The notes under the pieces were generated by a model, which searched no databases, was not told the DNA's origin, and worked only from the letters and a program-made list of their open reading frames with translations. A program made the position numbers and the translations under genes. A stretch of DNA of 64,000 nt from Brachyspira aalborgi (GTDB lineage Bacteria > Spirochaetota > Brachyspiria > Brachyspirales > Brachyspiraceae): positions 62,001 to 126,000 of the forward strand of contig NZ_SAXU01000001.1 of assembly GCF_008016455.1 (NCBI RefSeq), written 5' to 3'. This document shows positions 9,773 through 59,742 of the stretch, one piece after another. Every line of letters starts with the position of its first letter. The stretch's first letter is position 1.

Positions 9773-11137
9773 TTATTTCTGCCATTTATCAGGATTTTTA
9801 TTCCATTCTATCGCTATTTTAAAATCTTCCTCGCTTATAAATTTTTTATCTTTGGCAATTTTCATTAAAGTTGAAAAATTAGAGAGTGAAGAGAATTTTA
9901 TTTTTGCATCTTCAAAATTTTTATTTGCCTTTTCAAATTCATAAGAGAATATAGATATTATTTCAAGTCCAATAGCTCCATCTTCTTTGGAGGCTTCAAA
10001 AGCTTTAATAGAACTTGAACCTGTTGAAATTAAATCTTCTATCAATATTAATTTTTTATCTTTGCATTCCGCTCCTTCAATTTGTTTGCCTTTTCCATGC
10101 TCTTTTTTTTCGGCTCTTATATAACATAATGGTTTATTTAATTCGTAAGATATAAAAGAAGCCCAAGGAATTCCCGCCGTTGCCGTTCCGCCGACTATGT
10201 CAAAATCTTTATTTTTTAAAATATCTACAAAAGCGTCAACTATGATTTTTCTGTATTTTGGAAAACCGATTATATATCTATTGTCGCAATAAATCGGGCT
10301 TTTTATTCCCGACACAAAAGTAAAAGGATTTTTAATATTTAATTGAACGGCGTTAGTTTCAAGCAAGGCTTCCGCTATTAATACCGATTTTAAATTTTTA
10401 TTATTTTCAATTCCTTCGGCTATTTCTTCTATAATCATTTTGCAAGCTTTAACTCTGTCATCGCTTCTTGTTATAGGTCTGCCAACAACAATATAATCGC
10501 ATCCGTTTTCAATGGCTTCTTTCGGCGTCATCGTTCTTTCTTGGTCGTTAATATCAGCCCATTTTGGACGAACTCCAGGACAAACCGTTATAAAATTTTC
10601 TCCGCATTCTTTTTTTATAATATTCGCTTCTTTTGGCGAGCATACAACTCCGTCTAATCCCGCTTCTTTTCCTAATTTTGCCCAATTTACTGCAAGGTCT
10701 TTAAGAGCTAAATTTGAACTAAACATATTTTTTATATCGTTTTCGGATAGACTCGTTAAAACTGTAACTCCGATTATTAAATTATTTTTATTGATTTTTT
10801 TAATCTCTTCGACTGTTTTCTCCATCATTCTTTTACCGCCGCTTGTGTGAACATTAAACATAAAAATATTTTGTTTCGCGGCAAATAAAGAAGCCATAGC
10901 GGTTGTGTTCGGTATATCATGAAATTTCAAATCTAAAAAAACTTTTTTATTTTTGCTTGCCAAATATTCTATTATCTCTCCTTTAGTGTATAAAAAGAGT
11001 TCTAATCCGACTTTATAAAATATCGCCTCTTCACCAAGTTCGTCTATAAGTTTTGTAGCTTCGTTCATAGAATTAAAATCTAAAGCTATAATTAATTTTT
11101 CTTTCGGATTATTTATAAATTGATTTCTATCTTTCAT
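9773..11137 (-). CDS. pyrF/pyrE: bifunctional orotidine-5'-phosphate decarboxylase / orotate phosphoribosyltransferase
   Basis: A 454-residue fusion of the last two steps of UMP synthesis. Residues about 10-235 are OMP decarboxylase, with IALDFNS, the catalytic DLKFHDIPNT and VVGRPITRSDD near the phosphate-binding end. Residues about 250-454 are orotate phosphoribosyltransferase, with IYCDNRYI, a FVSGIKSPI substrate segment and the PRPP loop LILIEDLISTGSSS. The decarboxylase comes first, the reverse of the animal UMP synthase order. It is the last gene of the minus-strand operon pyrK-pyrD-pyrF/E, 19 bases after pyrD. Both halves look intact. Confidence 0.93.
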   Translation of the reverse strand: MKDRNQFINNPKEKLIIALDFNSMNEATKLIDELGEEAIFYKVGLELFLYTKGEIIEYLASKNKKVFLDLKFHDIPNTTAMASLFAAKQNIFMFNVHTSGGKRMMEKTVEEIKKINKNNLIIGVTVLTSLSENDIKNMFSSNLALKDLAVNWAKLGKEAGLDGVVCSPKEANIIKKECGENFITVCPGVRPKWADINDQERTMTPKEAIENGCDYIVVGRPITRSDDRVKACKMIIEEIAEGIENNKNLKSVLIAEALLETNAVQLNIKNPFTFVSGIKSPIYCDNRYIIGFPKYRKIIVDAFVDILKNKDFDIVGGTATAGIPWASFISYELNKPLCYIRAEKKEHGKGKQIEGAECKDKKLILIEDLISTGSSSIKAFEASKEDGAIGLEIISIFSYEFEKANKNFEDAKIKFSSLSNFSTLMKIAKDKKFISEEDFKIAIEWNKNPDKWQK

Positions 11138-57695: not shown

Positions 57696-58709
57696 TTAAA
57701 ATCTCACTACATCTCTGTTAATCTCTTTTAAACTATGAACTCCGCACATTGTCATAGCGTCTTCTAATTCAGCTCCAAGTTGATTAATATATGATTTTAC
57801 TCCCTCCTCTCCGCCTCCGTATAAAGCTATAACAAAAGTTCTTGCTATAACTACTCCGTCAGCTCCAATTCCTAAAGCCTTTAATATATCCGCTCCGCTT
57901 CTTATTCCGCCATCAACTAAAATTTTTATAGTTCCTCCAACTGCGTCTACTATTTCGGGCAAAACCTCCGCAGTAGAAGCGCATTGGTCTAAAACTCTTC
58001 CGCCATGATTTGAAACTATTATAGCGTCAGCTCCAGATTCTCTAGCCTTAATTGCGCCTTTTGCCGTCATTATTCCTTTTATTATAAAAGGACGATTTGC
58101 AATTTTTTTTATCTCTCTTAATTCTTCAATAGTTTTGCTTCCAGCTTTTGGCGTGAGATTTTTCAAAAATGGAAGTCCCGCTCCGTCAATATCCATAGCG
58201 ACAGCGAACGCGTTTGAATCCTCCACTAATTTCATTTTTTCTTTTATAATATCTATATTCCAAGGTTTAACGGTAGGAATTCCCATTCCGTTTTGTTCTT
58301 TTATCATATTTGTAGCTGCAATCATAACATTTGGATTGACTCCGTCTCCCGTAAAAGCGGCTATTCCAGAATCGTTGCAAGATTTTAACATTATATTATT
58401 ATATTCTTCTTCGGTATATTTATCGCCGTAATGAAGTTGAACGGCTCCGACAGGTCCCGCAAATATTGGATATTTAAATTTTTTTCCGAATAATTCAAAA
58501 CTCGTATTGACATCTTTATTTTCCGCTATCGTATCCATATTAAGACGAATTTCTTTCCATTTATCGTAATTTCTGATAGCGACATCTCCTATTCCTTTAG
58601 CACCAGGTCCTGGCATAGAATTTTTACATACCTTACCGTTACATATAATACAGGCTTTACAAAAACCCATGCAATCTTTTGCAACTTCTATAATTTCTTT
58701 ATAAGTCAT
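57696..58709 (-). CDS. FMN-dependent alpha-hydroxy-acid oxidoreductase
   Basis: A 337-residue TIM-barrel flavoprotein. The FMN and substrate motif VSNHGGRVLDQCASTAEVLPEIV near residues 230-252 and ILVDGGIRSGADILKALGIGADGVVIARTF near 259-288 are typical of lactate/glycolate oxidases. The N-terminus instead carries five Cys (C13, C17, C20, C23, C28) in CMGFCKACIICNGKVC, suggesting a metal or iron-sulphur site, as in related clostridial proteins. It is a single gene; the substrate cannot be named. Confidence 0.88.
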   Translation of the reverse strand: MTYKEIIEVAKDCMGFCKACIICNGKVCKNSMPGPGAKGIGDVAIRNYDKWKEIRLNMDTIAENKDVNTSFELFGKKFKYPIFAGPVGAVQLHYGDKYTEEEYNNIMLKSCNDSGIAAFTGDGVNPNVMIAATNMIKEQNGMGIPTVKPWNIDIIKEKMKLVEDSNAFAVAMDIDGAGLPFLKNLTPKAGSKTIEELREIKKIANRPFIIKGIMTAKGAIKARESGADAIIVSNHGGRVLDQCASTAEVLPEIVDAVGGTIKILVDGGIRSGADILKALGIGADGVVIARTFVIALYGGGEEGVKSYINQLGAELEDAMTMCGVHSLKEINRDVVRF

Positions 58710-58829
58710 AATTAATCCTTAAAAATATATATTTAATATAATACCATATTTTATAGTAATGTCAAAAATATTGTAATTCATTATTTTGCATTTAATAATT
58801 CTTAAATATTAAAAATAAATAAAAAATAC

Positions 58830-58857
58830 TTGTTTTTTTTAAATAATTGATTATACT
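58830..58857 (+). promoter_or_regulatory. promoter of small RNA copy A
   Basis: TTGTTT at 58830-58835 and TATACT at 58852-58857, 16-base spacer. Confidence 0.6.
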
Positions 58858-58863
58858 TTAGGT

Positions 58864-58945
58864 AGATAGGATTTAAGCTTTGAGACATAACGCTACAATG
58901 AGTAATTGTTGTAGACTGTGCGGCTTATAGTCCTATCTTTCATTA
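58864..58945 (+). ncRNA. unrecognised small structured RNA, copy A
   Basis: About 80 nt. P1 GATAGGA (58865-58871) pairs with TCCTATC (58931-58937), then a T-rich tail. P2 TAAGC (58874-58878) pairs with GCTTA (58923-58927). P3 CTACAA (58893-58898) pairs with TTGTAG (58909-58914) around loop TGAGTAATTG. The predicted transcription start falls at the P1 edge. The 475-base gap 58710-59184 holds three such units and nothing else. Confidence 0.75.
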
Positions 58946-58953
58946 TTACCACT

Positions 58954-58982
58954 TTGACTTTTAGAAAATAATTGATTATACT
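58954..58982 (+). promoter_or_regulatory. promoter of small RNA copy B
   Basis: TTGACT at 58954-58959 and TATACT at 58977-58982, 17-base spacer. Confidence 0.75.
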
Positions 58983-58988
58983 ATAAAC

Positions 58989-59072
58989 GGGTTGGATATG
59001 TATTTGGAGTTTTTAACTGCATATTGAGTAATCGGTATGTGTTAGTGCCATACAATATCCAACCTTTATTTT
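58989..59072 (+). ncRNA. unrecognised small structured RNA, copy B
   Basis: P1 GGTTGGATA (58990-58998) pairs perfectly with TATCCAACC (59056-59064), then TTTATTTTATT. P2 TGTAT (58999-59003) pairs with ATACA (59050-59054). P3 GCATAT (59019-59024) pairs with GTATGT (59035-59040, two G-U) around loop TGAGTAATCG. The stems differ in sequence from copy A but the pairing and loop are kept. Confidence 0.78.
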
Positions 59073-59080
59073 ATTAACTC

Positions 59081-59109
59081 TTGACTTTTATTAATTAATT
59101 TATTATATT
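59081..59109 (+). promoter_or_regulatory. promoter of small RNA copy C
   Basis: TTGACT at 59081-59086 and TATATT at 59104-59109, 17-base spacer. Confidence 0.7.
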
Positions 59110-59115
59110 AAGTAT

Positions 59116-59195
59116 AGGTTGGATTTATAAATTGAGTTTAACGACATATTGAGTAATTGGTATGCACGGCTTTATAAGTCCAATCTATTTTTTAT
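59116..59195 (+). ncRNA. unrecognised small structured RNA, copy C
   Basis: P1 GGTTGGAT (59117-59124) pairs with GTCCAATC (59178-59185) with two G-U, then CTATTTTTTATT. P2 TTATAAA (59125-59131) pairs with TTTATAA (59171-59177) and stacks directly on P1. P3 CATAT (59145-59149) pairs with GTATG (59160-59164) around loop TGAGTAATTG. The tail overlaps the 3' end of tag on the other strand. Confidence 0.78.
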
Positions 59196-59742
59196 TATAA
59201 AACCTACAATTTATAGTATGGTCGTTAATTATCCCTATTCCTTGCAAATAACTATAAATTATAACGCTTCCCGTAAATTTAAATCCTCTTTTAATTAAAT
59301 CTTTGCTTATTAAATCGGATAATTCGTTTCTTGCGGGCAGATTGTCAGTCGATTTTAATTTATTATTTATTCTTTTGCCTTTCGTAAAACTCCAAATATA
59401 TTTATCGAAACTTCCAAATTCTTTTTGAACTTCAATAAATTTATTAGCGTTTATTATTAAAGCTTCCAACTTTCTTCTATTTCTAATTATTTCTTTATTA
59501 TTCAAAAGCTCTTCCATTTTTTTAGAATCGTATTTAGATATTTTTTTATAATTAAAATTGTCGAATGCTTTTCGCATATTTTCTCTTTTATCTAAAATAC
59601 ATTTCCAATTTAAACCAGCCTGCATTCCTTCGAGTATAAGCATTTCAAATAATCTTTTTTCGTCATGACAAACTCTGCACCATTCTTCATTATGATATTT
59701 TATTTCAATTTCGCTTTTTGCCCATTTGCATATTCCTTTCAT
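59185..59742 (-). CDS. tag: DNA-3-methyladenine glycosylase I
   Basis: A 185-residue base-excision enzyme that removes 3-methyladenine. The zinc ligands known from E. coli Tag have counterparts here: C5 (CKWA), H17 (KYHNEEW), H175 and C179 (NDHTINC). The HNEEW and FEMLILEGMQAGLNWKCIL segments near 17-50 are typical. It ends the minus-strand gene run that begins at 63198. Confidence 0.92.
   Translation of the reverse strand: MKGICKWAKSEIEIKYHNEEWCRVCHDEKRLFEMLILEGMQAGLNWKCILDKRENMRKAFDNFNYKKISKYDSKKMEELLNNKEIIRNRRKLEALIINANKFIEVQKEFGSFDKYIWSFTKGKRINNKLKSTDNLPARNELSDLISKDLIKRGFKFTGSVIIYSYLQGIGIINDHTINCRFYNKK

What the first reader, a model, noticed from the sequence alone, without database searches (positions are those of the whole stretch)
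58825..59195. Three tandem copies of an unrecognised small structured RNA, each with its own promoter
Seen directly: three units spaced about 125 bases apart. Each has a sigma-70-like promoter (spacers 16, 17, 17), then a stem starting at the predicted transcription start whose far strand runs into a T-rich tail. Inside are two further stems. The P1, P2 and P3 stem sequences differ between copies but pairing is retained, a compensatory pattern, while the apical loop TGAGTAAT(T/C)G is identical in length and nearly identical in sequence. A 5' internal loop with GAG and TAAC is also shared. Inference: a family of about 80-nt RNAs expressed as separate transcripts, perhaps a protein-sponging or antisense regulator. 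The units are not a riboswitch for tag, which lies on the other strand. I recognise no known family.
Basis: partly seen in the sequence, partly recalled or inferred. Interest (0 to 1): 0.9.

Follow-up and report, generated by a model that had tools for sequence, protein, structure and literature searches.

The report
Orphan RNA array tied to phage toxins
Three small structured RNA genes in a spirochaete belong to a so far undescribed set of RNAs that phages carry beside a predicted RNA-cutting domain of their head protein, and they probably act as RNA antidotes to it; here they stand alone as what looks like a small stockpile of antidotes.

Summary
Three ~72-nt units with conserved promoters fold far better than shuffles (z about -5) and covary. 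A covariance model finds a fourth copy in the genome and copies in four congeners, but no Rfam family matches. The key is context. Outside the triplet the RNA sits just 3' of, and convergent with, the gene for the Mu-F-like minor head protein of Mu-like (pro)phages, specifically when F has a C-terminal PBECR/MuF_C-type (predicted RNase) domain. The same layout recurs with divergent RNAs, several cloverleaf- or tRNA-like, in treponemes, proteobacteria and cultured phages (B3, Pmp9, CAM-P21). In 181 F genes an automated convergent stem-plus-promoter call is positive in 41/65 F with a His-bearing domain, 1/10 with the His lost, 5/37 with other domains and 7/69 with none (P=2e-12, first against last two). 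Best explanation: RNA antitoxin/immunity factors for phage-borne RNase domains. The window triplet, without a toxin and with units as different from each other as from phage copies, would be an orphan immunity-RNA array. The association is well supported; the antitoxin function is inferred and untested.

The parts
58830..58857 (+). promoter of unit 1: TTGTTT (58830-58835), 16-nt spacer, TATACT (58852-58857)
   Evidence: sequence; block conserved in homologues; weak on its own
58865..58937 (+). RNA unit 1: closing helix 58865-58878 with 58923-58937, hairpin 58893-58901 with 58906-58914, GUAA loop 58902-58905
   Evidence: 86.4 bits under model R1, which was built from it
58954..58982 (+). promoter of unit 2: TTGACT, 17 nt, TATACT
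   Evidence: conserved block
58990..59064 (+). RNA unit 2, closest phage copy L043 (81%)
59081..59109 (+). promoter of unit 3: TTGACT, 17 nt, TATATT
   Evidence: conserved block
59117..59185 (+). RNA unit 3, closest phage copy L042 (78%, equal to its identity with unit 1)
59185..59742 (-). tag-like gene (3-methyladenine DNA glycosylase), convergent neighbour of unit 3; not thought part of the system

Best explanation
The three units are copies of a phage-derived RNA antidote. In Mu-like prophages the RNA gene lies just downstream of, and convergent with, the gene for the F (MuF) minor head protein whose C-terminal domain is a PBECR/MuF_C-type predicted endoribonuclease. F is a virion protein, so the domain is probably delivered into the next cell (inferred). 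The RNA, transcribed from its own promoter in the lysogen, most likely binds the domain as a pseudo-substrate and neutralises it (inferred; several relatives are cloverleaf- or tRNA-like, which suggests a tRNA-type substrate). In this chromosome three diverged copies sit together without a toxin and would act as an orphan immunity array against incoming MuF toxins; a fourth copy still faces an intact remnant of the domain elsewhere. Shown: RNA family, covariation, association with the domain, association with its conserved His. Inferred: RNase activity, binding, neutralisation, protection.
For: Covarying RNA family. F-adjacent convergent placement in G013 and remnants in G000 and G022. Presence follows the C-terminal domain, not F's N-terminal relatedness. 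41/65 His-bearing, 1/10 His-less, 5/37 other, 7/69 none (Fisher P=2e-12 and 0.004). Phage Mu, MP38 and MuM16-1: His lost, no RNA; B3, Pmp9, CAM-P21: His kept, RNA present; L183 against L262/L269. Exact tRNA T-arms in 4 His-bearing loci, none in 116 controls. Domain related by profile to MuF_C of Mu, which PMC5512222 assigns to PBECR RNases. MuF proteins are a toxin family needing immunity (PMC5576092). Units 1-3 are as far from each other as from phage copies.
Against: No transcript, toxicity, binding or neutralisation was tested. Brachyspira-type domains have N where most members have S/T. No PDB structure matched the model. Some His-bearing F seem to lack an RNA (L253, L215). RNA classes share layout, not sequence, so one common origin is not shown. 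The detector was written after several classes had been seen, and loci are phylogenetically related. The fourth copy's domain ORF may be an unexpressed remnant.
Confidence: 0.6

Rival explanations
1. The RNA is a cofactor of F: the domain binds it for head assembly, DNA piloting or delivery of the RNA itself (RNA-binding rather than antitoxin role, loosely like phi29 pRNA).
For: Tight coupling to the domain; PMC5512222 proposes RNA binding for Mu's inactive domain.
Against: His-less domains, which might still bind RNA, lack the RNA gene; triplet and remnants persist without head genes.
Confidence: 0.15
2. The RNA is a tRNA-like decoy against host anti-phage tRNA nucleases or another host defence, and only by chance of selection sits next to this type of F.
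For: tRNA-like T-arms and cloverleaf shapes; the copies in G000 and G022 lie near CRISPR and mcrBC-like genes.
Against: Does not explain dependence on the F domain and its His.
Confidence: 0.1
3. The RNA is a cis or antisense regulator or terminator of the F late operon.
For: Convergent, with the 3' end meeting the F stop.
Against: The RNA body hardly overlaps F, structure rather than sequence is conserved, and chromosomal copies have no F.
Confidence: 0.08
4. CRISPR-related RNA (tracrRNA-like or repeat-mimicking anti-CRISPR): the 5' strand GGUUGGAUUU can pair with AAAUCUAACC of the host repeat.
For: 10-nt complementarity and adjacency of copy 4 to array and cas1.
Against: A match of this size is expected about 0.1-0.5 times by chance (hand estimate); that strand differs in other copies.
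Confidence: 0.03

Closest known systems
MuF polymorphic toxins of temperate phages (PMC5576092)
   Same: Toxin-type C-terminal domain on the MuF head protein, with an element directly after the gene that is likely immunity.
   Different: There the proposed immunity is a small ORF on the same strand; here it is a convergent structured RNA.
PBECR / MuF-C domains of polyvalent proteins (PMC5512222)
   Same: Predicted RNase domain in Mu F; Mu's copy called inactive.
   Different: No RNA partner is described in the passages read.
Type III toxin-antitoxin systems (ToxIN)
   Same: An RNA that would neutralise an endoribonuclease protein; RNA units can be repeated.
   Different: Type III has repeats and toxin in one operon, ToxN-type toxin and processing of repeats by the toxin (own knowledge; PMC8860590 abstract). 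Here each unit has its own promoter, is convergent, and the protein is unrelated in sequence.
AbiF-RCd22 of a C. difficile prophage (PMC12373285)
   Same: Phage-borne toxic protein neutralised by a separate structured RNA through direct binding.
   Different: Abi_2/AbiF protein, not MuF; not a virion protein.
Orphan immunity arrays (PMC5361080, PMC9484751)
   Same: Several diverged immunity factors side by side without their toxin.
   Different: Those are protein genes; these would be RNA genes.

Membership tests
Type III toxin-antitoxin system | RNA antitoxin repeats and toxin gene in one operon under one promoter | tested here: not met
   own promoters, convergent to F or without a toxin
Type III toxin-antitoxin system | ToxN/CptN/TenpN-type toxin | tested here: not met
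   the domain gives no such Pfam hit
Type III toxin-antitoxin system | RNA binds and inhibits the toxin | not testable with these tools
   needs experiment
MuF polymorphic toxin (protein partner) | N-terminal MuF domain on a phage head protein | tested here: met
   PF04233 E 4.6e-14, phrog_220
MuF polymorphic toxin (protein partner) | variable C-terminal domains | tested here: met
   L048-L050 share the N-part but have other C-termini
MuF polymorphic toxin (protein partner) | C-terminal domain is toxic | not testable with these tools
   needs experiment
PBECR / MuF_C RNase domain | sequence relation to MuF_C (PF18819) | tested here: inconclusive
   no direct Pfam hit for the window's branch; L217 and Mu hit below cut-off; profile-profile 85%, E 6e-6
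PBECR / MuF_C RNase domain | His in an N-terminal helix, then four or five strands | tested here: met
   invariant His in a helix followed by strands in the AF2 model
PBECR / MuF_C RNase domain | C-terminal Ser/Thr | tested here: inconclusive
   S/T in L044-L047, L092 and others; N in Brachyspira types and L100
PBECR / MuF_C RNase domain | BECR fold by structure comparison | tested here: inconclusive
   no PDB match; viral matches include phage nuclease and RNA polymerase fragments
tRNA | recognised as a tRNA gene | tested here: not met
   ARAGORN finds none at the RNAs
Any Rfam family | score above the gathering threshold | tested here: not met
   none for the window or the F-linked RNAs; the hit is a tRNA elsewhere in L050

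The most novel reading that the evidence does not exclude
A widespread, undescribed class of RNA-based immunity: phages arm a virion protein with an RNase domain and encode a cognate tRNA-like or hairpin RNA as its antidote, RNA and domain are swapped together, and bacteria keep arrays of orphan antidote RNAs. It would be the first RNA-encoded immunity for polymorphic toxins known to me.
Probability: 0.55. Interest if true: 0.95.

Novelty: new variant of a known kind. Interest (0 to 1): 0.86.

Why it matters
Immunity to polymorphic toxins has been sought as small proteins. If an RNA fills that place for a predicted RNase class found on Mu-like phages of spirochaetes and proteobacteria, many F proteins with unexplained C-terminal extensions and no immunity gene (the Ct_MAD question of PMC5576092) become testable at once, including in cultured phage B3. 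It would also show bacteria stockpiling RNA antidotes.

Tried and rejected
Rfam and ARAGORN: no known family. Relation to the CRISPR array next to copy 4: judged chance. BLASTN of the units in relatives gave mostly promoter-like noise, hence covariance models. The leader at G000:C1:913472 shares only the promoter block. Scans with the alignment of the domain alone failed for lack of conserved stretches; full-length F was used instead. tblastn of the domain alone in cultured phages: none; full F gave 261 records. PDB fold search of the domain: negative. Weak R1/R2 hits in G002, G003, G014, G021 and G023 match only part of the model or score near chance and were set aside.

Full report
WHAT IS THERE. 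Between an FMN-dependent oxidoreductase-like gene (57696-58709, minus; named by recall) and tag (59185-59742, minus) lie three plus-strand units at 58865-58937, 58990-59064 and 59117-59185. Each follows a TTGAC-like/TATA-like promoter block and is followed by a T-rich stretch. Each folds about 5 standard deviations better than shuffles: a closing helix of up to 14 bp, an asymmetric internal loop (GAG..AAC on the 5' side) and a 9-bp hairpin capped by GUAA. The promoters taken alone are no better than chance in such AT-rich DNA; their conservation between homologues is the evidence.

COVARIATION AND HOMOLOGUES. A fourth copy lies 1.7 Mb away. On four copies 94.6% of pair cells are standard, with 13 two-sided changes and 0/500 shuffles as high. 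A model of these four finds one clear copy in each of four of the 25 other genomes of the genus. With two phage copies, one copy from another Spirochaetota genome and one weak hit added (12 rows), 54 two-sided changes are seen, 0/500 shuffles as high, and slid pairings fall to about 40%. That alignment was fitted to the model. No Rfam family matches. The genus is unnamed in the data; I take it to be Brachyspira from composition and gene content (inference). The phylum is Spirochaetota: an F gene found in the phylum search is identical to one in a named Treponema socranskii record.

CONTEXT. In G013 the RNA lies in a Mu-like prophage (portal, terminase, rve transposase, AAA protein, S24 repressor), directly 3' of and convergent with the F gene (L031 8521-9795 against RNA 9791-9863, minus). 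The fourth own-genome copy faces an open 181-aa remnant of the C-terminal part of the same protein (L035 9729-10274), next to a CRISPR array. In G022 it faces a decayed remnant (4 stops) beside mcrBC-like genes (named by recall).

THE RNA FOLLOWS THE C-TERMINAL DOMAIN. Of F relatives in viral contigs, those with the same C-terminal domain (L042-L047) all carry a convergent structured RNA there: L042 and L043 by model, L046 at 66% G+C (E 3.6e-7), L044, L045 and L047 by inspection with a weak or no model score. F closer in the N-terminal part but with other C-terminal domains (L048-L050) do not. A profile of the domain finds 13 carriers in 393 Spirochaetota genomes, and the flanks read show promoter plus structured RNA even where the sequence is unrelated. 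Exceptions: L104, where the domain is fused to another, and L107, not readable.

WIDER SURVEY. Scans with full-length F gave named genomes and more viral contigs. With eight cultured-phage loci, 181 distinct F genes were grouped by their C-terminus: 65 with a PBECR-like domain with His, 10 with it but without His, 37 other, 69 none (the border to 'other' was set by E-value because weak matches came from the linker). An automated call (outer stem plus promoter near the F stop on the opposite strand, against shuffles) was positive at p<=0.05 in 41, 1, 5 and 7. Fisher P=2e-12 for His-bearing against other or none, 0.004 against His-less. The one His-less positive is phage Mu, where gene G overlaps the F stop, so I read it as a chance call. 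The caller misses RNAs plain to the eye (e.g. L274, L131); L253 and L215 seem to lack one. The detector was written after several classes had been seen, and the loci are related to one another, so the P values are indicative only.

NATURAL EXPERIMENTS. Phage Mu, MP38 and Shewanella MuM16-1 have lost the His and have no RNA, the next gene following at once; B3, Pmp9 and CAM-P21 keep it and have one. L183 keeps His and RNA; its relatives L262 and L269 have lost the His motif and show no such RNA. Iyer et al. (PMC5512222) assign MuF-C of phage Mu to the PBECR fold and call Mu's copy inactive. So the RNA goes with a presumably active domain, as expected of an antidote.

SHAPE OF THE RNAs. Exact tRNA T-arms occur in 4 His-bearing loci, none in 116 controls, 0.00 expected; near-canonical ones in L097, L118, L103, L131 and L273. 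Class C (L217, B3 and others) folds as an outer stem with three arms, though with little covariation support (5 of 32 pairs; covariation term not favourable). The Brachyspira class has one long hairpin with GUAA. A tRNA-type substrate for the domain is a reasonable guess; tRNA cleavage is untested. That GUAA mimics a GUN anticodon is speculation.

THE DOMAIN. AF2 (8 sequences, pLDDT 83) gives helices then six strands with the invariant His in a helix. No PDB match; viral hits include phage nuclease and RNA polymerase fragments. hhalign links it to the alignment that holds Mu (85%, E 6e-6). Brachyspira-type domains have N where S/T is expected, so their activity is uncertain.

THE WINDOW TRIPLET. 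Units 1-3 are 58-78% identical to each other, and 78-81% to different phage copies (unit 1 to G013, unit 2 to L043, unit 3 to L042, the last no closer than unit 3 is to unit 1). This is not a recent tandem duplication. A string of diverged antidotes without toxin would resemble orphan immunity arrays of protein type (PMC5361080, PMC9484751, abstracts only). This reading is inference.

PRIOR KNOWLEDGE. MuF toxins with small-ORF immunity (PMC5576092), PBECR domains (PMC5512222), and RNA antitoxins such as type III systems and AbiF-RCd22 (PMC12373285) are known. No paper found in the searched open-access library ties an RNA to MuF; subscription papers are not covered.

Noticed in passing
L035 8809-9466 (G000:C1 about 1825.8-1826.5 kb): CRISPR array of ten readable repeats (ATAATAAATCTAACCATATTGGAATGTAAAT) beside a cas1-like ORF, ending next to the fourth RNA copy.
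   Followed up: partly
L048, L049, L050, 3' ends of the F genes: F proteins with related N-termini but quite different C-terminal domains (HExxH-, possibly ART- and JAB-like motifs by eye), mostly followed by a small same-strand ORF.
   Followed up: partly
L270 2635-2733 (Pseudomonas phage B3 ORF34): An annotated 33-aa ORF after F lies where the convergent class C RNA is read; the ORF is probably spurious.
   Followed up: partly
L018 1528-1600 (G000:C1 about 913.5 kb): Nearly the same promoter block as the RNA units stands before a lipoprotein-like gene with a short leader hairpin.
   Followed up: no
L032 10134-12678 (G022): mcrBC-like gene pair right beside the RNA and the decayed F remnant.
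   Followed up: no
L058, L065, L070, 3' ends of the F genes: F with C-termini outside the PBECR profile also score for a convergent stem plus promoter; L070 has an RH..KKH motif and may be a further branch.
   Followed up: no
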